Shown: in pieces, positions 1,214 to 12,216 of the stretch
Numbering within the stretch: position 1 is the first letter of the stretch
Layout of the letters: each line of letters starts with the position of its first letter
NCBI GenBank assembly: GCA_030533315.1
Contig: JAUNJL010000032.1
Span: forward strand, 1-13,765
Direction: 5' to 3'
Source of the DNA: Eubacteriales bacterium
GTDB lineage: Bacteria; Bacillota_A; Clostridia; Lachnospirales; Lachnospiraceae
DNA length: 13,765 nucleotides
Notes under the pieces: model-generated
Databases searched by the model: none
Told to the model about the DNA's origin: nothing
What the model saw: only the letters and a program-made list of their open reading frames with translations
Made by a program: the position numbers and the translations under genes

Positions 1214-2188
1214 GTGAGAGGAAGAAAAAAAGATATGGAGGATTTCTTGAAGCATACAGCAGCGGATACGTCTGTTCGGCCGGGAGAATATGGGGGAGAG
1301 GCGGAGGACGCGGGGATGGCAGGCTACCCTGTTTTCGATGGTATTCAGATCGTATACCATGACGTACATATGCAGGAGCGCCGCCCCAATGTGGAGATCG
1401 TTCCCCGCTGGGAGAGAATCATTGAAATTGACCATTGCATGGAAGGGCGGATAGAGTGTTCCAAAGGAGAGCAATTTTTTTATTTATCCCAGGGGGACAT
1501 GGCGATCCACAAAAGCGTGGGTGTGGAGCACAATACTTTTTTTCCCACCAGCCATTATCAGGGGATCACCATTGTCATTGATCTGGACAAAGCGCCCAAA
1601 TGCCTGTATTGCTTTCTGGCGGATGTCCATATAGAGCCGGAAAGCATCATGAACCGTTTCTGTGGGAAGGAGGATCTCTTTATCGCCCGCAGCAGTCAGC
1701 GGCTGGAGCACGTCTTCGCAGAGCTTTACCATGTGCCGGAGGAAGTGAAAAGGGGATATTTAAAGATAAAGATTTTGGAGATCCTGCTGTTTTTAAGTGT
1801 ATTTCCTTCAAAACAGGGGGCCGGAAGGAAGTCCTATACGTTTGCGCAGGTACGGCTGGCAAAGGAGGTGTGCCGATATCTGTCGGAGAATATGGACAGG
1901 CACATCCATATCGAACAGCTGGTGCAGGAATTTCATGTTTCCGCATCCCAGCTGCAAAGCTGCTTCCGGGGAGTCTACGGAGAGTCGGTATATGCGTATA
2001 TCCGCAGGCGAAAGATGCAGAGTGCGGCCCATATGCTGAGAAGTACGGATAAAAGCATTCTGGAGATTGCAAACGATCATGGATATGAGAATGGGGGCAA
2101 ATTTGCGTCGGCTTTCAAGTCTGCCATGGGTCTGCTCCCAAATGAATACAGAAGTATGGAGCCCGTATCGATCCCGGAGCAGGGATGA
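1214..2188 (+). CDS. AraC-family transcriptional regulator
   Basis: This 324-residue protein has a cupin-like N-terminal sensing domain (about residues 50-150, including IIEIDHCMEGRIEC, FYLSQGDMAIHK and HYQGITIVIDLDKA) and a C-terminal pair of helix-turn-helix motifs (about 215-315). The second motif contains ILEIANDHGYENGGKFASAF and then PNEYRSM, the classic AraC/XylS ending. The GTG start is chosen because GGAGGG (1202-1207) sits 6 nt upstream; an in-frame ATG at 1235 has a worse site. A CLYC pair near residue 137 in the sensing domain could respond to metal or redox state, which is speculative. The gene has its own promoter and terminator and lies directly upstream of the transporter operon in the same direction, so it probably controls that operon. 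Similar regulators in Clostridia are often next to importer genes. Confidence 0.92.
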   Translation: MRGRKKDMEDFLKHTAADTSVRPGEYGGEAEDAGMAGYPVFDGIQIVYHDVHMQERRPNVEIVPRWERIIEIDHCMEGRIECSKGEQFFYLSQGDMAIHKSVGVEHNTFFPTSHYQGITIVIDLDKAPKCLYCFLADVHIEPESIMNRFCGKEDLFIARSSQRLEHVFAELYHVPEEVKRGYLKIKILEILLFLSVFPSKQGAGRKSYTFAQVRLAKEVCRYLSENMDRHIHIEQLVQEFHVSASQLQSCFRGVYGESVYAYIRRRKMQSAAHMLRSTDKSILEIANDHGYENGGKFASAFKSAMGLLPNEYRSMEPVSIPEQG

Positions 2189-2500: not shown

Positions 2501-3514
2501 ATGATGTCTATGAAAAAGCTTTTGACCTTCATACTGGCTTTTGCAATGATGTGCTGCCCGTTGATCCAGTGCTATGCGGAGGAAAATGAAGAGCAGGCGG
2601 ATCCGGGTACGCAGGTAAGCCAGGAGCAGGAGATTTGTATCCGGGTGGGACTGCCTAAGGCGCCGCCGGCGTTTCCTGTCCTGCATATGCTGGAAGAGAA
2701 AATGCTGGGAGAAAATGTGGGGCTGGAGCTGGAGGTTTGGGATGCGCCGGAGCAGCTAATCGCCATGGTGCAGGATGGCAATCATGAAATGTTTGCTTTT
2801 CCCTTGACCGTCATCAGCAAGCTGTACAACAAGGGCCTGGATGTTCAGCTGATGAATGTGAATACCTGGGGGGTCACCTATTTCTTGACCACGGATCCGA
2901 ATTTTCAGTCGTGGGCGGATCTGAAAGGGAAAAAGGTTTACGTGCCCCTTCAATCATCACCGCCAGATGCTTTGACGCAGTATTTTTTGAAGGAAGCTGG
3001 CTTAAAGGTCGGCGAAGATGTGGAGCTGGTATATGCGGCAACTACGGAGGTGGCCTCGCTCCTTGCTTCTGGGGAGGCGGAGTATGCGACATTGATCGAG
3101 CCTCAGGTGACGGCCGCCTTGGAAAAGAACGACCAGGTGATCCGCAGCCTGAGCTTTGAGGAGGAGTGGCAGAGGGTGACGGAAACAGATACCATGATCC
3201 CCAATGCGGGATTTGGGGTGACAGGCTCCTTTGCTGAGGAAAATCCGGAGCTTACGGCGGCATTCCAGAATGCTTATGAGGAAAGCACGGAGTGGGTATT
3301 GGAACACCCCCAGGAAACGGCGGCTTTGGCGGAAAAATACTTTGGTATGGACGGGGGGCTGGTGGAGAAGGCCATTCCCAATATGGGGCTGTGCTTTAAA
3401 TCTGCCGAGGACGCAAGCTCAGAGCTGGACATCTTCTATCAGCTGCTGAATGATTTTGACCCATCCATGATTGGTGGTAAGCTTCCCGACGAAGGCATGT
3501 ACTATGAAGGCTAA
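2501..3514 (+). CDS. ABC transporter substrate-binding protein, NitT/TauT type
   Basis: This 337-residue exported protein starts with a signal peptide: Lys-Lys, then a hydrophobic stretch from about residue 6 to 24, with likely cleavage after CYA (about residue 26). There is no good lipobox. The mature part follows the NMT1/SsuA/ThiY-like pattern: IRVGLPKAPPAFPVLHMLEE at the start, an NTWGVTYFLTT strand, SWADLKGKKVYVPLQSSPPD, and later YATLIEPQVTAALEKN. These families bind taurine, sulfonates, nitrate, pyrimidines and similar small molecules, so the ligand cannot be named. Three in-frame ATGs (2501, 2504, 2510) follow AGAGGAG (2492-2498); 2504 has the best spacing, 2501 is the longest. This is the first gene of a six-gene operon, and its end overlaps the permease start. 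Confidence 0.9.
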   Translation: MMSMKKLLTFILAFAMMCCPLIQCYAEENEEQADPGTQVSQEQEICIRVGLPKAPPAFPVLHMLEEKMLGENVGLELEVWDAPEQLIAMVQDGNHEMFAFPLTVISKLYNKGLDVQLMNVNTWGVTYFLTTDPNFQSWADLKGKKVYVPLQSSPPDALTQYFLKEAGLKVGEDVELVYAATTEVASLLASGEAEYATLIEPQVTAALEKNDQVIRSLSFEEEWQRVTETDTMIPNAGFGVTGSFAEENPELTAAFQNAYEESTEWVLEHPQETAALAEKYFGMDGGLVEKAIPNMGLCFKSAEDASSELDIFYQLLNDFDPSMIGGKLPDEGMYYEG

Positions 3515-4244
3515 GCTTTGGCCGGGACTGCTGTCGGCGGCTCTGCTTCTGGGCAGCTGGCATTTGCTTTCTCTTTTCTTTCCGCCGCTGGTGGTGCCGC
3601 CCATCTCCAGCGTGTGTGTCAGCCTGGCGGAGATTATTGGAGAGGTTCGATTTCTATCGACGGTTTTTACGACCCTGCTGCGTTTGGCGGCAGGGTTGGT
3701 GATTGGTACCGCCATTGGCGGCGGATTGGGGCTGCTGTTTGGTCTGAACCAGAAGCTGGAAAAGGTACTGTCCCCCTTTGTGGGGGTGCTGCAGGCGGTT
3801 CCTCCCGTGTGTTGGGTGGTCCTGGCGCTGGTATGGTTTGGCTTTAACGGTAAGCCCTGCGTATTTATTGTGGCCACGGCGGCCATTCCTCCTGTTGCCA
3901 TCAACATCAGCGGCGGGGTGAAAAACATCGATAAGGAGCTGTTGGAAATGGCAAGGCTGTACGGCTTTTCCAGGGGGAAGACCCTGAGGCACGTCGTTTT
4001 GCCCTCCATCGGGGCATCCTTTCGGTCTGCTATGGAAATCGTGACCGGCAGCAGCTGGAAGCTGGTGGTGATGGGAGAGGTGCTGACGACCAACAGCGGG
4101 ATCGGCGGTGCGATCACTACGGCGCGGCTGAATCTGGAGCCGGAGAGGATCCTTGCCTGGGCGGTCATCCTGGTAGTTTTTTGCTTTTGTATGCAAAAGA
4201 GTATGGCGGTTGTCTTTTGCGGGAAGAGAGGTGCGGTATGCTGA
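3504..4244 (+). CDS. ABC transporter permease, NitT/TauT type
   Basis: This 246-residue inner-membrane protein has about six hydrophobic segments. The ABC-ATPase docking (EAA) loop is clear: KELLEMARLYGFSRGKTLR followed by HVVLP (near residues 145-168). The N-terminus (WPGLLSAALLLGSWHLL, then PPLVVPP) and AVPPVCWVVLALVWFG are typical of SsuC/TauC-like permeases. The ATG at 3504 is preferred: it has GAAGG 8 nt upstream and starts right before the first membrane segment. A longer reading from TTG at 3471 is possible. The gene overlaps the binding-protein gene by 11 nt and the ATPase gene by 7 nt, which implies tight translational coupling. Confidence 0.9.
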   Translation: MKAKLWPGLLSAALLLGSWHLLSLFFPPLVVPPISSVCVSLAEIIGEVRFLSTVFTTLLRLAAGLVIGTAIGGGLGLLFGLNQKLEKVLSPFVGVLQAVPPVCWVVLALVWFGFNGKPCVFIVATAAIPPVAINISGGVKNIDKELLEMARLYGFSRGKTLRHVVLPSIGASFRSAMEIVTGSSWKLVVMGEVLTTNSGIGGAITTARLNLEPERILAWAVILVVFCFCMQKSMAVVFCGKRGAVC

Positions 4245-4936
4245 GCGTGCAGAAGGTAAGTAAGGCATATGGAGAGCTTCCCGTTGTCCGCAATCTGAGC
4301 CTGGAGGTGGACAGAGGTGAGATCGTTGCCCTGATCGGTCCTTCCGGCTGTGGGAAGTCCACGCTGCTGAACATGATATCCGGTCTGATACAGCCGGACA
4401 GCGGAAGGATAGAAAAGGGAGACGTAAAGCTTAGCTACATGTTTCAGAAGGCGAGGCTGCTTCCCTGGCGGACGGTTTACCAAAACATTGCGCTGGTTCG
4501 GGAAAATGCGTCGAAGGATGAAACAGAGCGTTTGATACAGGCGGTGGGATTGGGGGGATTTGAGAATTATTATCCCGGCCAGCTTTCCGGCGGCATGGCC
4601 AAGCGATGCGCTTTGGCGCGGGCGTTCCACTACCAGGGGGACGTCTTGCTCATGGACGAGCCATTTCAGGGATTGGATTATGGGATACGGATGGAGATGC
4701 TGTCCATGCTGATTTCGATCTGGAAGCAGAAAAAGCAGGGGATCCTTTTTGTGACACATGAGATCGACGAGGCGCTGACGGCGGCCACGAAAATAGCGGT
4801 ACTGAAGGCTCGGCCCACGGCCGTCCAGGAGGTCCTGTGCCTTCCGGGGCAGGTGGGAAGGGACGCTGCGTCGCCGGAGCTGGCAAAGATTCGCGGGCAT
4901 ATCATTCATGAGATGATGCAGGAGCCTCAAGCTTGA
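4238..4936 (+). CDS. ABC transporter ATP-binding protein, NitT/TauT type
   Basis: This 232-residue ATPase has every expected motif: Walker A GPSGCGKST (34-42), Q-loop MFQ with Q70, signature LSGGM (116-120), Walker B VLLMDE (136-141), D-loop GLD (145-147) and the switch His in THE (H174). LLPWRTVYQNI after the Q-loop is typical of the nitrate/taurine/sulfonate group. The ATG at 4238 overlaps the permease stop codon (ATGCTGA) and has AGAGG at a good distance; the frame is open further upstream to 4181, but that part lies inside the permease gene. It powers import through the adjacent permease. The gene ends 23 nt before cupin 1. Confidence 0.93.
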   Translation: MLSVQKVSKAYGELPVVRNLSLEVDRGEIVALIGPSGCGKSTLLNMISGLIQPDSGRIEKGDVKLSYMFQKARLLPWRTVYQNIALVRENASKDETERLIQAVGLGGFENYYPGQLSGGMAKRCALARAFHYQGDVLLMDEPFQGLDYGIRMEMLSMLISIWKQKKQGILFVTHEIDEALTAATKIAVLKARPTAVQEVLCLPGQVGRDAASPELAKIRGHIIHEMMQEPQA

Positions 4937-4959
4937 GAGAAACCGAAAGGAATGAAAAA

Positions 4960-5289
4960 ATGGAATATTTAAGAAATCTTCCCTTGGGTCACCCGAAGGA
5001 GCTGTCGAGGCTGATCCACATCAGGCCAGGGAGGGTCGTCAGTATGGAGCTTTCCCGGAAAGAGGATTGCAGGATATCCCTGCTCAGCTTTGCGGATGGC
5101 GAAGGTGTAAGTGAAGAGGCCTATTATGGCGACACGTTATATTATGTTTTGGAAGGAGAAATGCCCTTTGTGGAGGGGGAAAAGAAGACGGTGGTAAAGC
5201 AGGGAGAGTGTATCTGTGCTCCGGCCCATACCCTTCATGCCATTGGAGGCGCCTCTCCCTTCAAGCTGTTGCAGATCACCATCGGATGA
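4960..5289 (+). CDS. Small cupin-domain protein (copy 1, metal site degenerate)
   Basis: This 109-residue protein is a single cupin barrel: GDTLYYVLEGEMPFVEGEKK, then KQGECICAPAHTLHAIG. The ATG at 4960 is preferred because AAAGGAA lies 7 nt upstream; a TTG at 4933 in the same frame would overlap the ATPase stop. It is a clear paralogue of the next gene (shared GRVVS, DGEGVS/DQGEGVS, LEG and PFKLL/PFKML blocks). The motif-1 histidine of copy 2 (H54) is Glu (E53) here, while the motif-2 histidine is kept (H93). The usual cupin metal site is therefore incomplete, and it may bind a ligand without metal or act as a structural partner. Its function is unknown; its operon position ties it to the importer and the activase protein. 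Confidence 0.82.
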   Translation: MEYLRNLPLGHPKELSRLIHIRPGRVVSMELSRKEDCRISLLSFADGEGVSEEAYYGDTLYYVLEGEMPFVEGEKKTVVKQGECICAPAHTLHAIGGASPFKLLQITIG

Positions 5290-5345
5290 CGGGAAAATGA
5301 GAGTTTATAGAAGCGTTTTGATGTATCGTAGTAGGAGGAAATAAC

Positions 5346-5681
5346 ATGGAAAAGCTGATAAAAAATGTGGAATGTGCACAGCCCTTCGAAGTAAAGGCGC
5401 TGGTTTCCTATGAGAGCGGAAGGGTGGTCAGCCTGACTCTGGCACAACGTCCAGGAGTGGGGATGACCTTGTTTGCCTTTGACCAGGGAGAAGGTGTCAG
5501 TACTCATGCGGCGCCGGGGGACGCCATGGCTTACATTCTGGAAGGAAAGGCCTCGATCACCATTGACGGCACGGCGCATGAGGTAGAGGAGGGAAACGCC
5601 ATTGTGATGCCAAAGGAGGTCCCCCATGCGGTGAAAGCGCTCACTCCCTTTAAGATGCTGCTGACGGTTGTGAAGCCCTGA
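5346..5681 (+). CDS. Small cupin-domain protein (copy 2)
   Basis: This 111-residue single-domain cupin has GEGVSTHAAPGDAMAYILEG (motif 1, H54) and EEGNAIVMPKEVPHAVKA (motif 2, H94). It matches a widespread clostridial cupin type that ends PFKMLLTVVKP. A strong AGGAGG (5332-5337) lies 8 nt before the ATG. The 56-nt gap after copy 1 holds no clear promoter or hairpin. The stop codon is followed two bases later by the first possible start of the large activase protein, so the two are probably translationally coupled. The metal or ligand is unknown; possible roles are metallochaperone, small-molecule sensor or accessory subunit of the activase protein. Confidence 0.88.
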   Translation: MEKLIKNVECAQPFEVKALVSYESGRVVSLTLAQRPGVGMTLFAFDQGEGVSTHAAPGDAMAYILEGKASITIDGTAHEVEEGNAIVMPKEVPHAVKALTPFKMLLTVVKP

Positions 5682-5683
5682 CC

Positions 5684-8600
5684 ATGGGAGAAAACAGAAA
5701 AATGGAGAGGAAGGACATGGGCGAAGGATATCAGCTGGGGATGGATCTGGGCAGCTCAGCTTTAAAGGTATGTCTCTGTCAGAGGGGAAAAATCCTTTTT
5801 TTGAAGAAATCCATTCATCACGGAGGCTGGAAAAAGGAAGCCCGCAGGCTATTAAAGGAATTGGCAGGCCGGTATCCTCAGATGGAAAGGGTCAAGGCCG
5901 CAGTCAGCGGCAGCAATGCGTCGGAGCTGGCGGCGCTTTTGGGGAAGGAATATCTGGTTCAGGACATTCCGGCAATCACCAGGGGAAGCGTGGAATATCA
6001 GGCGGGCTCACTGATGGAGATCGGCTCGCAAAATGCCAGGTTTATCACGGACATCCAGAAAGGGAAAACGCCCAGATTTGCCGTGAACGAGCAGTGTGCA
6101 GGGGGAACTGGGTCGTTCTTTGAAAGCCAGATGGCGCGCCTGGGAATGACCATTAATGACATCTCCCAGCTGGTCTTAAAAGCGGAGTCGGCACCTGCTC
6201 TTTCAGGAAGGTGTGCGGTTTTTGCAAAGACGGACATTATCCATAAGCAGCAGGAGGGCTATCAGACGCCGGACATCCTGCTTGGTCTATGCTACGCCAT
6301 GGTGAGGAATTATAAGGCGGTGATCGTGCGCAAGCTGCCAGTTTACAAGCCTGTGCTGTTGTGCGGTGGGATTGCCGCAAACCTGGGGGTGATCCGGGCA
6401 ATGAGGGAGGTGTTTGCCCTTTCTCAGGAGGAGCTCCTCATACCTCAAAACCATGATTTTATACAGGCTATTGGCACGGCCAGGCTTGGGGAGAGAGAAA
6501 TCCAGGTGGCACAGATCCTCCGGTGTCTGGATGATACCCTGAGGGTTCGGCGGGAAGAAAGGAAGACCTGTCTGGGCAGCAGGGCATGGGATGAGTGCCG
6601 CTGCGGGGATCCGGGTAAGACGGGAAGGCTCAGCGGGAAGGCTTGCTTTCTGGGGATCGACATCGGTTCTACCAGCACCAACGTCTTGCTTATGGAAGAG
6701 GGGAATGTGATCGTGGATTACTGGTATCTCCGCACCCTGGGAGACAGCATGGGGGCTGTGCAGAGAGCCTTTGCCGAAATACGGAAAGGATATGGAGACA
6801 TCAGGCCCTCCGCCGTGGGGATCACAGGTTCGGGAAGGGAGAGGATCGGAAGGATGCTGGGCTGTGATGTCGTCGTGGATGAGATCACATGTCAGGCAAA
6901 GGGAGCGGCGGCGGGGTGTCCGGAGGCCGATACGATTTTTGAGATCGGTGGACAGGATTCCAAATTTATCGCCGTCGAAAGAGGAGAGGTCCGAGATTTC
7001 CGCATGAACAAGATCTGCTCCGCAGGAACCGGAACCCTTGCCGAGGAACAGGCAAATGCGTTAGGGATCTCCATCGGAGAGTTTGGAGAGCTGGCTCTGG
7101 ATGGAGAAAATCCCACCGCACTGAGCGAACGCTGCACCGTGTTCATCGAAACAGCGGTCAAGAATGCCCTCAGCAGGGGAGAGACGAAGGAAAATATCTG
7201 CGCAGGTATCTGCGAAGCGATCGTGAGCAATTATCTGCACAAGGTGGCGGCGGAGGATCGGATAGGAAACCATATCGTGCTGCAGGGAGGGGTAGCCTAT
7301 AATCCTGGTATCGTAAGGGCTTTCCAAAAGAGATTCCAGGGGCGTATCAGGGTGAACCCACTTTTCCCGGTAAGTGGGGCGATGGGAGCGGCCATCATGG
7401 CTATGGAGGCAGGAGTGTCCTCCTCAAGGTTTCGGGGATTTTTGCCATTGCAGGGGCGGCCGGCTGACCGAGACGAAGAGCTTTCCCCGGAGACACAAAG
7501 GAGGATCCAGGCCTATAAGCAGGCACAGGCGGAGCTGTTTGCAGGATACGAGGAAAGGATCAATCCAGAGAAAGAGACGGTGGGGATCCCCCTGGTATTG
7601 GTGCTGCACAAGTTTTTTCCCATGGCGAGAGCATACTTTTCCTCATTGGGTTACAATGTGGTATGCTCTGGCTACACCACCCCGGAGATTTTGGAGCTGG
7701 CACAGAGATATGCCCAGGGAGAGGTGTGCTTTCCGGTGAAGCTGATGTACGGCCACATGATGTATCTGGCGGAGAAAAAGGTAGATTATATTTTCATGCC
7801 GTCGATCCACACGATGCGTCATGTCAACTCTGGCGTGGAGCACAATTATGGCTGTATGTACATGCAGAGCGCAGCCAGGATCGTGGCGGAAAACCTGGAA
7901 TTGGAAAGGATGGGGATACGGCTGCTAGATCCCGTATTTGACATGGATTTCGGCGCTCCTGCCATGGTGAAGTCCATGATAGAGCTGGGGGTCCGGCTGG
8001 GGCATCCCGCGCCAAAGGCCATGTTTGTCATGACGAAGGCTGCCAAGGCTCTGATGTCTTACACCAAAGGACAGGAAAAAATGGGAAGGGAGCTTCTGGC
8101 TTCACTGGGAGATTGCAAAAAGGCGGTGGTGCTGATCTCGAGGCCGTACAATTTGTCGGATCCAAGGCTGCACATGGGGATCGCAGAGATGCTGATGAAG
8201 AGGGGGATGCCCGTGCTGACTATCGAAAACCTGCCGGCGGATGATACGGACATTTCCCAGGAATATCCGAACTTTTACTGGCCTTTTTCTCAGCACATTC
8301 TGACAGCCGCAAAGCAGGTGAGACATCATCCCAATCTGTATGCGGTTTATCTGATGAACCACGGCTGCGGGCCTGACAGTGTGCTGTCCCATGCGTTCAG
8401 AAGAGAGATGGGAGATAAGCCTTATCTGGCCGTGGAAATTGACGAGCAGACCTCGGCGGTTGGGGTGGTGACCAGGATAGAAGCGTTTTTAAGGAGCGTT
8501 CATGGCAGGCCGACCTGTCGATTAGAGAAAGGGTTTGACCTGAAGGCGGTGACGGTCAAGCCGTACCCCGTAACTACTTTGAGAGAGATCGCCGGGGAAA

Positions 8601-9403
8601 GGGTGTATTTCCCGGCTCTGGGAAAGTATACGGAGGCGATCGCCAGGTATCTGAGGGAGACCTACAGCCTGGAAGGGATCCCCTGCGATATCACGGACAG
8701 GGAGACGATCCGTATCGGACGCAGCCTCACATCCTCAAAGGAGTATATCACCTTCACCGCCATGCTGGGGATGGCGGTAGGCCTGGCACGGCAGGCAAAG
8801 GAAAAAGGCGCCCACAGGTATTTTCTGCTGTCGGAAAACCAGGGGGCGGAAGCTGACGGAGTCTTCGCCAGGGTCATAGGATCCGTTTTGGAGGAACAGG
8901 GCCTGGATCCATATCTGACCATCCTTTCGCCCATGCTGGAGAGGGCTTTTGGCATTGCCGGATATTTTTCTGAGGTGGACCGGGGCTTCTCCTCAAAGGG
9001 GAGGATCCTTGTGGTGGGAGAGCCGCTTTGTGTCCACGCCTTTGGAAAGCCATATATGGAGCTGATCCGCAGAGCCGGGATGGAGTATGAGCTTATGCCC
9101 CTTTCCAGTTATCTGGATTTTCTCTGGGGAAGGGAAACGGAGGAGACAAAGCGATGTGCAGGGCTGGCGGATAAGAGGGTGCCTGTTTTTGATGGGGGGA
9201 ATGGGCGCTTCCGCTGTGGCTTTGCAGAGGCTGCGGAGGATGCAAGGGGAGTGCTCCTATTGTCCCCTCTTTATGAGAACACAGGCCTGATCCTGGAGCT
9301 GGCAGGGATCGGGGGGAAGGCTCCCCTGCTCCATCTTGCCATTGACGGAAATGTGGATGAGGGAAGCAGGAACAGGCTGGAGACCTTCTTGTATTATCTC
9401 TGA
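5684..9403 (+). CDS. Large acyl-CoA dehydratase activase fusion: two BcrAD/BadFG domains + DUF2229/HgdB-like region
   Basis: This protein has 1239 residues. Activase domain 1 (about 16-285) has DLGSS (21-25), NEQCAGGTGSF (C138) and SGRCAVFAKTD (C177). Activase domain 2 (about 322-590) has DIGST (326-330), FEIGGQDSKF (420-429), NKICSAGTGT (C445) and SERCTVFIET (C484). The Cys pairs are each 39 residues apart, as in HgdC, where they hold a [4Fe-4S] cluster at the dimer interface. From about 632 comes a DUF2229 region with C661, C682 (GEVCFPVK) and C724, then an HGD-D-like part with NHGCGPD (C895) and VEIDEQTSAVGVVTRIEAFL. The C-terminal 240 residues resemble the last part of HgdB-like proteins but read SSKEYITF where I recall Cys in relatives. 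The likely role is ATP-driven transfer of low-potential electrons to a reductase site in the same chain; the substrate is unknown. The start is uncertain: ATG 5717 has GGAGAGG 6 nt upstream, while 5684 has only a weak site. It is the last gene of the operon. Confidence 0.88.
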   Translation: MGENRKMERKDMGEGYQLGMDLGSSALKVCLCQRGKILFLKKSIHHGGWKKEARRLLKELAGRYPQMERVKAAVSGSNASELAALLGKEYLVQDIPAITRGSVEYQAGSLMEIGSQNARFITDIQKGKTPRFAVNEQCAGGTGSFFESQMARLGMTINDISQLVLKAESAPALSGRCAVFAKTDIIHKQQEGYQTPDILLGLCYAMVRNYKAVIVRKLPVYKPVLLCGGIAANLGVIRAMREVFALSQEELLIPQNHDFIQAIGTARLGEREIQVAQILRCLDDTLRVRREERKTCLGSRAWDECRCGDPGKTGRLSGKACFLGIDIGSTSTNVLLMEEGNVIVDYWYLRTLGDSMGAVQRAFAEIRKGYGDIRPSAVGITGSGRERIGRMLGCDVVVDEITCQAKGAAAGCPEADTIFEIGGQDSKFIAVERGEVRDFRMNKICSAGTGTLAEEQANALGISIGEFGELALDGENPTALSERCTVFIETAVKNALSRGETKENICAGICEAIVSNYLHKVAAEDRIGNHIVLQGGVAYNPGIVRAFQKRFQGRIRVNPLFPVSGAMGAAIMAMEAGVSSSRFRGFLPLQGRPADRDEELSPETQRRIQAYKQAQAELFAGYEERINPEKETVGIPLVLVLHKFFPMARAYFSSLGYNVVCSGYTTPEILELAQRYAQGEVCFPVKLMYGHMMYLAEKKVDYIFMPSIHTMRHVNSGVEHNYGCMYMQSAARIVAENLELERMGIRLLDPVFDMDFGAPAMVKSMIELGVRLGHPAPKAMFVMTKAAKALMSYTKGQEKMGRELLASLGDCKKAVVLISRPYNLSDPRLHMGIAEMLMKRGMPVLTIENLPADDTDISQEYPNFYWPFSQHILTAAKQVRHHPNLYAVYLMNHGCGPDSVLSHAFRREMGDKPYLAVEIDEQTSAVGVVTRIEAFLRSVHGRPTCRLEKGFDLKAVTVKPYPVTTLREIAGERVYFPALGKYTEAIARYLRETYSLEGIPCDITDRETIRIGRSLTSSKEYITFTAMLGMAVGLARQAKEKGAHRYFLLSENQGAEADGVFARVIGSVLEEQGLDPYLTILSPMLERAFGIAGYFSEVDRGFSSKGRILVVGEPLCVHAFGKPYMELIRRAGMEYELMPLSSYLDFLWGRETEETKRCAGLADKRVPVFDGGNGRFRCGFAEAAEDARGVLLLSPLYENTGLILELAGIGGKAPLLHLAIDGNVDEGSRNRLETFLYYL

Positions 9404-9422: not shown

Positions 9423-9460
9423 GAAAGAGTGCGGGGGCATGGATCCTCGCACTCTTTCTT
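9423..9460 (+). terminator. Rho-independent terminator of the transporter/activase operon
   Basis: The arms GAAAGAGTGCG (9423-9433) and CGCACTCTTTC (9448-9458) form a perfect 11-bp stem around a 14-nt loop, 20 bp after the stop codon. The T-run is partly inside the stem. A closely similar element follows the BCCT gene at 10900-10948. Confidence 0.82.
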
Positions 9461-9631: not shown

Positions 9632-10880
9632 TTGAAGAAAAATCAAAAGAGTACGATGAACACCAGGAGAAACCTGTTTGACGTGTTGACGCCGGTGTTT
9701 TGGATCGCGCTGATCCTCACACTGCTCATTGTAGCGGGGGCGCTGCTGTTCCCAGAACCTTTTCAGCAGGTTACCTTGAACATCCAGGTATTCATAGGAC
9801 AAAATTTTGCGTGGTATTATCTTCTATTATCTACTCTGCTTGTCTTAGTCTGTGTATTTCTTGTTTTCAGTCCGATCGGAAAAATCAAGCTTGGGGACCC
9901 GGATTCAAAACCGGAACATTCTACATTTTCATGGCTGGCAATGCTGTTTTCCGCAGGTATGGGGATCGGCCTTGTGTTTTATGGTGCGGCAGAGCCGTTG
10001 TCTCATTTTGCCGTGTCAGCGCCTGAAGCAGAGCTCTTCAGCAGGGAAGCCCTGCGGGATGCGCTAAAGTATTCGTTTTTTCATTACGGGATTCACGCAT
10101 GGGCCATCTATGCGCTGGTCGCCTTGGCTCTTGCCTATTTTCAGTTCCGTAAACAGGAAAAAACCCTGATATCGGAGACGCTGAAGCCTTTGTTCAAAAA
10201 TAAAGTCGATGGTGTCTTGGGAAAAATGGTAGATGCTCTGACGATTTTTGCAACGGTAGTCGGTGTTGCAACCACATTGGGCTTTGGGGCTGCTCAGATC
10301 AACGGGGGCTTGCACCAGCTTTTTGGCGTTCCCAATGGATATCGGACGCAGCATTCGGGAATTTCTGGCCTGCGTGCTCCTGATCCCCTCCGCTTTTTCC
10401 TTCCTGTGGTTCTCCGTATTCGGGGTCATGTCAACCAAGGCGGTGCGCGAGCATCCGGAGCTTGCGGGTCAGCCGTATGAGTCCATGCTTTTTGGAGTCC
10501 TGCAGGAGTATCCGCTGACGCTGACACTGTCGGTCATTGCTATCGTGCTGGTATTTTCATTTTTTATCACTTCCGCCGATTCTGCCACGTATGTGCTGGC
10601 GATGCAGTCTGAAAATGGCAGGCTGAATCCCCATAACAAAGTGAAGGTGGTCTGGGGCGTCCTTCTTTCGGTGATCGCGTCTGTGCTGATGTTCAGAGGT
10701 GGCCTGAATGGCCTTCAAAATGTGCTGATCATTGTCGCTCTGCCGTTTTCCGTTGTTTTGATACTTCTGGTCGTCTCCGCAATTATTGAATTAAATTACG
10801 AAAAGGATCAGATGGGGTTGTCGATCAAGCCGGAAAGGTTCCCTGTGGAAAACGAACCGTTCCGCTCATATGAGGAGTAG
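9632..10880 (+). pseudogene. BCCT-family betaine/carnitine/choline transporter, internally deleted and frameshifted
   Basis: The N-terminal part (from a TTG at 9632, with AGGAG at 9621-9625, six bases upstream) reads as a normal BCCT protein through its first membrane segments. It includes FSAGMGIGLVFYGAAEP, the glycine stretch of Na+-coupled members, and reaches GFGAAQINGGLHQLFGVPN at about 10336. Homology then continues in a different frame from about 10341 with GRSIREFLACVLLIPSAFSF, FFITSADSATYVLAMQSENG and a normal C-terminus ending at 10880. In intact family members about 110 residues separate these two blocks, including membrane segments 5-8 and the tryptophan-rich substrate box (WxWW); here they are absent. 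So a non-multiple-of-three internal deletion has removed the substrate site and shifted the frame. The frame-1 reading runs out of homology and stops at 10480. The gene is very probably non-functional. An assembly error is the main alternative. Confidence 0.87.
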
Positions 10881-11118: not shown

Positions 11119-11181
11119 ATGACGCAGGGAGGCGGATGTGAAAGGTGCATTGGGCCGAAGGAAAGGAGAACGACACAAGAA

Positions 11182-12216
11182 ATGGAAATGAAAATGATCA
11201 CATTGGGAACGACGGGGATCCGGGTGCCTCAGAATGGGTTTGGCGCACTCCCGGTTCAGAGGGTGACGAAGGAGAAGGCGGTGGAGATCATCCGAAGAGC
11301 CTATGACGGCGGGATGCGGTTTTTTGATACGGCCAGGGCGTACAGTGACAGCGAGGAGAAGCTGGGGGAGGCGCTGCAGGTCTATCCCAGGGATAGCTAT
11401 TACCTGGCGTCTAAGACGGCGGCCACGACCCCGGAGGGGTTCTGGGAGGATCTGGAAAGGTCTCTGGAGCTTTTGAAAACGGATCATCTGGACATTTACC
11501 AGTTTCACTGTGCGGGAACGGTATTTCGTCCGGGAGACGGAAGCGGGATGTACGAATGCATGGAGGAGGCAAAGAGCCAGGGAAAGATCCGTCACATGGG
11601 GATCACGGCCCACAAGCTGCAGGTTGCCCTGGATGCGGTGGAGTCGGGCCTGTATGAGACGCTGCAGTTCCCCTTCAGCTACCTGTCCTCGGAAAAGGAG
11701 CTGGAGCTGGTGAGAAGGAGTGCAGAGAAGAACATGGGTTATCTGGCCATGAAGGGTCTGGCGGGAGGTCTGATCAACCAGTCTCGCCCTGCCATGGCGT
11801 TTATGGCTCAGTTTGACAACGTGCTGCCTATCTGGGGGATCCAGAAGGAGGAGGAGCTGGAGGAATGGCTGGCCTTTATGGAGGTCTGTCCGGTTCTGGA
11901 CGAGGAGCTTTCAGCCTTTATTGAGAGAGAAAAGAAAGAGCTGGCGGGAGATTTCTGCCGGGGCTGCGGATATTGTATGCCATGTCCGGCAGGCATCATG
12001 ATCAATCAATGTGCGAGAATGTCTCTCATGCTCCGCAGGGCGCCGTCTAAGGCATGGCTGACAGCGGAGATGCAGGAGGAGATGAAGAAGATCGAGGGCT
12101 GTCTGCACTGCGGCCAGTGTGCAAGGAAGTGCCCCTATGAGCTGGACACGCCGACGCTTTTGCAGAAAAATTATGAGGATTATCAGAGAGTTTTGGCCGG
12201 AGAGGTTCAGGTGTGA
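11182..12216 (+). CDS. Aldo/keto reductase with two C-terminal [4Fe-4S] motifs
   Basis: This 344-residue protein has an aldo/keto reductase barrel (about 5-240) with the catalytic tetrad D49, Y54 (FFDTARAYSD), K78 (LASKTA) and H109 (DIYQFH). A ferredoxin-like tail follows: C259, C262, C265 and C268 in CRGCGYCMPCP, and C307, C310, C313 and C317 in CLHCGQCARKCP, enough for two [4Fe-4S] clusters. This architecture is common in anaerobic Clostridia; such proteins are predicted cytoplasmic NAD(P)H- or ferredoxin-linked oxidoreductases with mostly unknown substrates. Three in-frame ATGs (11182, 11188, 11194) follow AAAGGAG (11162-11168); 11182 has the closest spacing, though at 13 nt it is long. 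The EamA gene follows after 16 nt, so the two are co-transcribed. Confidence 0.92.
   Translation: MEMKMITLGTTGIRVPQNGFGALPVQRVTKEKAVEIIRRAYDGGMRFFDTARAYSDSEEKLGEALQVYPRDSYYLASKTAATTPEGFWEDLERSLELLKTDHLDIYQFHCAGTVFRPGDGSGMYECMEEAKSQGKIRHMGITAHKLQVALDAVESGLYETLQFPFSYLSSEKELELVRRSAEKNMGYLAMKGLAGGLINQSRPAMAFMAQFDNVLPIWGIQKEEELEEWLAFMEVCPVLDEELSAFIEREKKELAGDFCRGCGYCMPCPAGIMINQCARMSLMLRRAPSKAWLTAEMQEEMKKIEGCLHCGQCARKCPYELDTPTLLQKNYEDYQRVLAGEVQV

What the first reader, a model, noticed from the sequence alone, without database searches (positions are those of the whole stretch)
2501..9403. Importer, two cupins and a fused activase/HgdB-like protein in one operon: candidate transporter-coupled ATP-dependent reductase
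Six genes are packed with overlaps or gaps of at most 56 nt between one promoter region and one terminator. Activases of the BcrAD/BadFG family normally serve separate two-subunit dehydratases, whose genes are usually adjacent. Here none is present; instead the HgdB/DUF2229-like region is in the same chain as two activase domains, and the operon also supplies a dedicated NitT/TauT importer and two cupins. The inference is that a small imported compound is reduced by strongly reducing electrons delivered by ATP hydrolysis, with cupins as ligand or metal partners. The nearest described analogue I know is the double-cubane-cluster protein system of Carboxydothermus, in which reductase and activase are separate proteins.
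Basis: partly seen in the sequence, partly recalled or inferred. Interest (0 to 1): 0.75.

Follow-up and report, generated by a model that had tools for sequence, protein, structure and literature searches.

The report
Single-chain ATP-driven reductase with importer
A bacterial operon pairs an uptake pump and two small cupin proteins with one giant protein that looks like a complete ATP-powered iron-sulfur reducing machine in a single chain; much the same gene set recurs in many anaerobes, so an unknown imported compound is probably reduced by it.

Summary
Window 2501-9403 is a tight six-gene operon: SBP, permease, ATPase, two cupins and a 1239-aa protein (BIG). BIG is activase half A1, activase half A2, an HGD-D-like domain D1 and a second HGD-D-like domain D2. 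D1 keeps three invariant cysteines, as in BzdO/HadB, not the six of a double cubane. In D2 the three cluster cysteines kept by 9 of 9 aligned paralog units are replaced (Tyr, Glu/Asp, YEN) in 28 of 28 clade members aligned. The neighbourhood is conserved: a NitT-type importer near BIG in 24 of 30 relatives and 11 of 18 held-out loci, cupins in 16 of 30 and 12 of 18; in 17 control loci of other DUF2229 proteins, none (three of these contigs are short). An exact GTATCnnnnGATAC palindrome lies within 500 nt upstream of BIG in 14 of 18 held-out loci, and a Crp/Fnr gene is near in 16 of 18; the window has neither, but an AraC gene. Three loci have a FecBCD-type importer instead. Best reading: a one-chain archerase-reductase acting on an imported non-CoA substrate; the substrate is unknown. 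New variant of the BCR/HAD family.

The parts
2501..3514 (+). substrate-binding protein of NitT/TauT type (NMT1 family), 337 aa
   Evidence: PF09084 45.3 bits; nearest solved chain 3hn0 'Nitrate transport protein' E 1.4e-21
3504..4244 (+). ABC permease (ORF opens at 3471, likely start ATG 3504)
   Evidence: PF00528 88.8 bits; best NCBIfam SaoP 115.2 bits, below its cut-off 295
4238..4936 (+). ABC transporter ATPase
   Evidence: PF00005 109.3 bits; best NCBIfam aliphatic sulfonates ATPase 163.1 bits, below cut-off 395
4960..5289 (+). cupin 1, 109 aa
   Evidence: PF07883 32.8 bits
5346..5681 (+). cupin 2, 111 aa
   Evidence: PF07883 45.2 bits; PDB 3rns E 1.5e-29
5684..9403 (+). BIG: fused archerase-reductase, 1239 aa (start at 5717 equally possible: 1228 aa in the protein database)
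5723..6583 (+). A1, first activase half; Cys138, Cys177
   Evidence: Pfam and TIGR00241 report two activase stretches; A2 also aligns to the A1 region of L002; Cys conserved 30 of 31, the other a gap
6635..7408 (+). A2, second activase half; Cys445, Cys484
   Evidence: PF01869; PDB 9gai, 1hux, 4eht, 7yyl; Cys conserved 31 of 31
7526..8539 (+). D1, HGD-D-like domain (DUF2229 plus the next ~100 residues); Cys682, Cys724, Cys895
8546..9400 (+). D2, second HGD-D-like domain without cluster cysteines
8744..8746 (+). Tyr1021 at the position of the first D2 cluster Cys of paralogs
8849..8851 (+). Glu1056 at the position of the second D2 cluster Cys
9272..9280 (+). Tyr1197-Glu1198-Asn1199 (YEN) beside the position of the third D2 cluster Cys
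9424..9457 (+). probable intrinsic terminator, 10-bp perfect arms, 14-nt loop
   Evidence: read by eye; not listed by the scanner
1214..2188 (+). AraC-family regulator upstream, candidate regulator in this genome
   Evidence: PF12833 74.8 bits; position only

Best explanation
The operon encodes uptake and reduction of one small compound. BIG is a complete two-component archerase/reductase in one chain. Inferred path: a ferredoxin-type donor reduces a [4Fe-4S] cluster held between A1 and A2 by Cys138/177 and Cys445/484; ATP hydrolysis in the pseudo-dimer pushes one electron at very low potential to a [4Fe-4S] cluster in D1 held by Cys682/724/895 with one open iron; the substrate, imported by the NitT/TauT-type (in a few relatives FecBCD-type) transporter, is reduced there or in the D2 pocket, where the former second cluster site has become a conserved Tyr/Glu/YEN site. 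Cupins would bind the substrate, product or a metal. In many relatives a neighbouring Crp/Fnr-type regulator probably acts at GTATCnnnnGATAC. Shown by computation: domain order, cysteine sets, D2 cysteine loss, gene co-occurrence, recurrent palindrome. Inferred: cluster types, electron path, substrate link, regulator-operator pairing, cupin role.
For: Domains. D1 and D2 models match HAD/BCR/DCCP structures above unrelated rows. Three invariant D1 Cys parallel the BzdO set Cys95/128/380 with a water ligand (PMC11971306 section 8). D2 resembles the separate second subunit of paralogs; its three Cys positions are changed in 28 of 28 and kept in 9 of 9 paralog units; in 18 further sequences (17 held-out loci plus the L085 plasmid) the first is Tyr 17/Thr 1, the second Glu 18, the third a gap 18. 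NitT triad 24/30, held-out 11/18, P. bifermentans plasmid 1/1, control 0/17. Exact palindrome within 500 nt upstream of BIG in 9/30 discovery and 14/18 held-out loci; about 1 per Mb in shuffles. BIG and SBP identities correlate over 35 loci, rho 0.59, 0 of 1000 label permutations as high, though plain vertical descent would also do this.
Against: No ligand of the SBP and no substrate is known; CoA binding was not tested. L042 has BIG without importer or cupin; L041 and L092 have cupins but no importer. Importer type is not fixed (FecBCD near BIG in L001, L034, L090), which weakens any single-substrate claim. Each activase half has lost part of its nucleotide motif (A1 the Asp of GGQD, A2 the Lys of DxGSTxxK), so ATP use is not certain. 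Foldseek alone gave no match at E <= 0.001, and its best hits for D2 were HdrB chains, not HGD-D. The window lacks the palindrome, and no Crp-type gene was found in it.
Confidence: 0.55

Rival explanations
1. BIG is a reductive activator or maturase: it delivers low-potential electrons to another metalloenzyme or to an imported metal complex used to build a cofactor, with cupins and importer handling the metal or ligand.
For: FecBCD-type importers lie near BIG, without NitT, in L001, L034 and L090; the binding proteins of L001 and L090 have HI_1472 and iron-type binders among their nearest solved relatives; in L090 an exact palindrome lies about 360 nt before the importer genes. Fur-type gene directly before BIG in L036 and a homologue in L040.
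Against: Most loci carry NitT importers. D1/D2 have the fold of the reductase itself, so a further target enzyme is not needed. No non-core family was found in more than 8 of the 31 sources clustered.
Confidence: 0.22
2. The system belongs to nitrogen-oxide stress: BIG reduces a nitrogen oxide or repairs nitrosylated centres with Hcp.
For: hcp within 9.5 kb in 2 of 30, 3 of 18 and 1 of 1 loci, 0 of 17 controls; hemerythrin, ferredoxin, NifU and two hcp beside the full gene set on a P. bifermentans plasmid; the neighbouring regulator is of Crp/Fnr type.
Against: No hcp within 9.5 kb in 43 of 49 loci (some contigs are short). On that plasmid exact GTAACnnnnGTTAC sites (the published HcpR2 motif, PMC1274295, passages) lie upstream of the ferredoxin/hemerythrin pair and of the second hcp, and a one-mismatch site upstream of the first hcp, while the BIG promoter carries a different palindrome, GTCTCATATGAGAC. 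Nitrogen oxides are easy to reduce and need no ATP-driven electrons (general knowledge).
Confidence: 0.13
3. BIG is a 2-hydroxyacyl-CoA dehydratase or CoA-dependent reductase; the importer brings the acid.
For: Same fold family; public names 'acyl-CoA dehydratase activase'.
Against: No CoA ligase or CoA transferase among the window proteins scanned; neighbours in relatives were not all annotated, and CoA binding was not tested. D2 lost its cluster ligands, unlike HAD and BzdNO, where both subunits carry a cluster.
Confidence: 0.08

Closest known systems
Class I benzoyl-CoA reductase / 2-hydroxyacyl-CoA dehydratase family (BCR/HAD)
   Same: Activase pair with two cluster Cys per half, and two HGD-D-fold units; three-Cys [4Fe-4S] site in D1 as in BzdO and HadB
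   Different: All four units in one chain; second unit has no cluster cysteines; operon has importer and cupins, and no CoA-activating gene among the window proteins scanned
Double-cubane cluster protein (DCCP) with DCCP-R
   Different: The [8Fe-9S] cluster has six Cys ligands (described for BzdN, PMC11971306 section 8); BIG has three conserved Cys in D1 and none in D2
Other DUF2229 systems in the same genomes (fused 1446-1638 aa, 995-1012 aa plus 410-460 aa, or split)
   Same: Same A1-A2-D1(-D2) order in the fused forms
   Different: D2 keeps its three cysteines (9 of 9 aligned); both activase halves keep full motifs (8 of 8 printed); no NitT importer or cupin nearby (0 of 17)
NitT/TauT ABC importers (SsuABC, Sao)
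   Same: Subunit families
   Different: NCBIfam scores of the SBP, permease and ATPase are below the equivalog cut-offs shown, so no ligand can be assigned
HcpR/HcpR2 regulon
   Same: Crp/Fnr-type gene next to the target, 5-4-5 palindrome
   Different: GTATCnnnnGATAC instead of GTAACnnnnGTTAC

Membership tests
BCR/HAD radical enzyme family | HGD-D fold with three-Cys [4Fe-4S] site | tested here: met
   model and VIA-align; Cys682/724/895 invariant; the cluster itself not measured
BCR/HAD radical enzyme family | ASKHA activase, two cluster Cys per half | tested here: met
BCR/HAD radical enzyme family | complete nucleotide motifs in the activase | tested here: not met
   A1 without the GGQD Asp in all 21 rows shown of 31; A2 without the Lys in all 27 rows shown of 31; 8 of 8 paralogs printed keep both. 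Functional effect unknown; that these residues define the family is recalled
BCR/HAD radical enzyme family | second HGD-D subunit carrying its own cluster | tested here: not met
   Cys absent in 28 of 28 aligned
BCR/HAD radical enzyme family | CoA-thioester substrate | not tested
   no CoA ligase or transferase among the window proteins scanned
Double-cubane cluster proteins | six Cys for [8Fe-9S] | tested here: not met
   three conserved Cys in D1, none in D2
NitT/TauT ABC importer | NMT1-type SBP, BPD_transp_1 permease, ABC ATPase | tested here: met
SAO (SaoXPA) importer | scores above NCBIfam equivalog cut-offs | tested here: not met
   SaoX 25.9 of 300, SaoP 115.2 of 295, SaoA 146.9 of 360
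HcpR2 regulon | GTAACnnnnGTTAC upstream of BIG | tested here: not met
   no exact site in the 350 nt upstream of core genes in 31 sources; different palindrome at BIG in L085
Cupin_2 | Pfam gathering score | tested here: met
   metal binding not tested

The most novel reading that the evidence does not exclude
A third branch of ATP-driven reductases beside CoA-dependent BCR/HAD and double-cubane proteins: a one-chain enzyme in which one cluster unit stays redox-active while the other was converted, from Clostridia to methanogens, into a cluster-free Tyr/Glu/YEN site that binds an imported non-CoA compound or a metal complex, with its own importer, cupins and Crp-type regulon.
Probability: 0.45. 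Interest if true: 0.87.

Novelty: new variant of a known kind. Interest (0 to 1): 0.72.

Why it matters
Archerase-driven reductases do some of the hardest reductions in biology; known members act on CoA thioesters, and DCCP reduces a few small test molecules with unclear physiology (PMC11971306, passages). A widespread branch with transporter, cupins, a recurrent promoter palindrome and a converted second active site suggests an unknown imported substrate that needs a very strong reductant. The conserved gene set makes substrate discovery practical (SBP ligand screen, regulon induction), and the natural loss of one cluster tests which cluster does the chemistry.

Tried and rejected
Double-cubane membership: rejected on cysteine count. 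Recoded stop codons: one search listed a TAG for G709/G710; tblastn over residues 16-1239 shows none inside; of the seven loci looked at, only that of G776 has an in-frame TAG and that of G458 a frameshift, so I see no recoding. Riboswitch as substrate clue: of the 30 sources searched, nothing in the window; NiCo (L035, L039), FMN (L048, L049) and cobalamin (L063, L065) hits lie in flanks (L067 and the later loci were not searched). Profile searches of D1 and D2 against PDB sequences found no relative, so the fold claim rests on models. Foldseek alone gave no match at E <= 0.001 for either model; its best hit was BzdNO for 590-1239 (E 1.4e-3) but HdrB of the Elp-Hdr complex for D2 alone (E 2.8e-3); the HGD-D relation of D2 comes from VIA-align of Foldseek's candidates, plus paralog subunits and motif positions. 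hhalign of D1 against D2 was only suggestive (67.8% probability). L100 has FecBCD genes upstream of BIG, but with two permeases and an enterobactin-like binding protein (below cut-off); not counted as a replacement importer. SBP ligand: no equivalog above cut-off. Literature: DUF2229 gives 1 paper (listing only); 'CoA-substrate-specific enzyme activase' 7 papers, of which I read passages of PMC5322559 (selenium genes of Slackia) and PMC4153887 (a methanogen table); neither passage describes this system. The listings showed nothing that describes it. PMC1274295: passages and section 12; PMC12915319: passages; PMC10418091: passages (not relevant). The library holds open-licence papers only; the DCCP paper of 2018 is not held.

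Limits of the counts: loci are related (L044/L045 and L048/L049 are near copies), so k of n are not independent events. The palindrome was found after looking at 2-mismatch hits of the HcpR2 motif in the discovery set, hence the held-out test; the held-out order also holds many of the discovery loci. Three control contigs are short (L074 7.7 kb, L083 4.8 kb, L084 8.6 kb). With a lower bar one control locus has a weak Crp hit (L079, 81 bits) and several have generic ABC ATPase hits. D2 counts: window plus 27 of 30 relatives; L047 (long insertions), L063 (interrupted) and L066 were left out. Held-out D2: 17 of 18 loci (L101 ends too early) plus L085. Paralogs: 9 of 17 had a D2 unit that I aligned. 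Four held-out contigs (L087, L098, L101, L103) end near BIG. In whole-genome searches only some candidates per genome were scored, so the tallies 4 of 247, 8 of 391, 12 of 138 and 25 of 247 are lower bounds.
Full report
Observation. The six genes are present at the stated coordinates, on one strand, with overlaps of 11 and 7 nt and gaps of 23, 56 and 2 nt. Pfam gives NMT1, BPD_transp_1, ABC_tran, Cupin_2 (twice), and for the 1239-aa protein (BIG) two BcrAD_BadFG stretches and DUF2229. An AraC gene precedes the operon (1214-2188) and a disrupted-looking BCCT transporter follows.

What BIG is. Residues 14-300 (A1) and 318-575 (A2) are activase halves. Each keeps two conserved cysteines: Cys138 and Cys177 (30 of 31 sequences, one gap each), Cys445 and Cys484 (31 of 31). 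In component A of dehydratases two cysteines from each of two monomers hold one cluster (PMC11574389, passage), so BIG could build it inside one chain. The HGD-D-like region holds three invariant cysteines: Cys682 (31/31), Cys724 (31/31), Cys895 (30/31, one gap). BzdO binds its catalytic [4Fe-4S] with three Cys and a water or hydroxide, HadB likewise, while the double cubane of BzdN has six Cys ligands (PMC11971306 section 8). In the relative P0004, Pfam's HGD-D model aligns to residues 854-907, the stretch with the third Cys (27.9 bits, just under its cut-off of 28.4).

D2 has lost its cluster ligands. A profile of D2 hits the separately encoded second subunits next to other DUF2229 proteins in the same genomes (ORFs of 410, 460, 444 and 364 aa). 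In 9 of 9 paralog units aligned, three Cys are shared (such as NDxC, GGGCR, PFGCLPN). In 28 of 28 BIG-clade sequences the first is Tyr, the second Glu (25) or Asp (3), and the third is a gap with YEN beside it. In 18 further sequences, 17 of the 18 held-out loci plus the L085 plasmid: Tyr 17 and Thr 1, Glu 18, gap 18; YEN in 16; YEN in 1 of 9 paralogs. By a loose pattern, YEN is present in 238 of 240 proteins listed by the two database searches, the window's own included; the methanogen proteins P0200 and P0218 show it by eye. The other D2 patterns of that script were loose or too strict to be a test (Tyr motif 178, Glu/Asp motif 201 of 240). The activase halves also changed: A2 reads EIGGQDSK in 31 of 31, but its first phosphate motif ends in Asn or Asp instead of Lys in all 27 rows shown of 31; A1 ends in Lys in the 16 lettered rows shown, but lacks the Asp of GGQD in all 21 rows shown of 31. 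Eight of eight paralogs printed keep both residues in both halves. I do not know what this does to ATP use.

Neighbourhood. The 30 BIG places found were fetched. An SBP, permease and ATPase of the window's type lie within 9.5 kb in 24 of 30; the six without are L001 and L034 (FecBCD-type importer), L040 and L051 (contig ends), L041 and L042. Cupins: 16 of 30; both importer and cupin: 12; Crp-type gene: 22 of 30. L037 has the window's order with a divergent Crp gene. In L034 a cupin ORF lies just behind the FecBCD genes. Control: 17 loci of other DUF2229 proteins from ten of these genomes show, at the same bars, SBP 0, permease 0, ATPase 0, cupin 0, Crp 0, Hcp 0, FecCD/PBP2 1; three of the contigs are short. 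A held-out set of 18 loci, the places not used before (28 places in 25 of 247 genomes), gave NitT triad 11, cupin 12, both 9, Crp 16; four contigs end near BIG, two of them with the ATPase after BIG. A plasmid of Paraclostridium bifermentans carries Crp/Fnr, BIG, SBP, permease, ATPase, cupin, cupin in a row. BIG-SBP identities across 35 loci correlate (Spearman 0.59; permutation 0 of 1000), which vertical descent alone could also give.

Palindrome. Testing the HcpR2 motif of PMC1274295 (GTAACnnnnGTTAC, passages) showed instead exact GTATCnnnnGATAC palindromes in front of BIG, Crp and SBP genes. Within 500 nt upstream of BIG: 9 of 30 discovery loci, 14 of 18 held-out loci; mononucleotide-shuffled held-out loci give about one per Mb. 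Cupin genes of L038, L043 and L086 have a one-mismatch form 67-83 nt upstream, and the FecBCD genes of L090 an exact one about 360 nt upstream. The window has none within one mismatch, in keeping with its AraC gene. Control loci: one exact site in 17 loci.

Mechanism and rivals. I favour ATP-driven reduction of an imported non-CoA compound at D1 or at the D1/D2 interface (0.55). The FecBCD importers of L001, L034 and L090, the Fur-type gene before BIG in L036 and L040, and arsenite-methyltransferase-like genes (below cut-off) behind BIG there, fused to BIG in P0229, keep a metal or metal-complex reading open. Hcp within 9.5 kb in 6 of 49 loci suggests a nitrosative-stress context in some hosts, but on the plasmid the hcp, ferredoxin and BIG promoters have different palindromes.

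Novelty. The family is known; this branch's architecture, loss of cluster ligands and gene system were not described in what I saw of the papers that my searches found (open-licence library only). I rate it a new variant of a known kind.

Noticed in passing
window 9635-10880: A BCCT (betaine/choline) transporter gene looks disrupted: the first ORF matches only profile positions 1-220 of 485, and C-terminal-looking sequence continues in another frame.
   Followed up: partly
window 11119-12216: Aldo/keto reductase with a C-terminal 4Fe-4S dicluster domain.
   Followed up: no
window 5684-9403, BIG residues 19-28, 112-119, 324-333, 420-427: The two activase halves lost different nucleotide-binding residues (A1 the GGQD Asp, A2 the DxGSTxxK Lys), a complementary asymmetry not seen in 8 paralogs printed.
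   Followed up: partly
L085 17145-23144: Beside BIG on a Paraclostridium plasmid: two hcp genes, two hemerythrin genes, ferredoxin and NifU; exact HcpR2 sites upstream of the ferredoxin (17914) and of the second hcp (21942), a one-mismatch site upstream of the first hcp (19870).
   Followed up: partly
L036 7953-13492; L040 402-5560: Fur-type gene directly before BIG and a methyltransferase resembling arsenite methyltransferases (below cut-off) directly behind it; in P0229 a methyltransferase is fused to BIG.
   Followed up: partly
L002, L044, L046, L050, L052, L053, upstream of the SBP gene: A large protein (ORFs of 728 to 1585 aa) precedes the importer genes; MBG_2 domain in 3 of 4 scanned (L002, L046, L050, not L053). 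Possibly a surface partner of the importer.
   Followed up: partly
L046 12574-15750: SECIS_3 element between an ORF with a Molybdop_Fe4S4 domain and the next 841-aa ORF, perhaps one selenoprotein reading through TGA.
   Followed up: no
L035 18714-18807; L039 1749-1855: NiCo riboswitch next to a CDF-type cation transporter gene a few kb from BIG.
   Followed up: no
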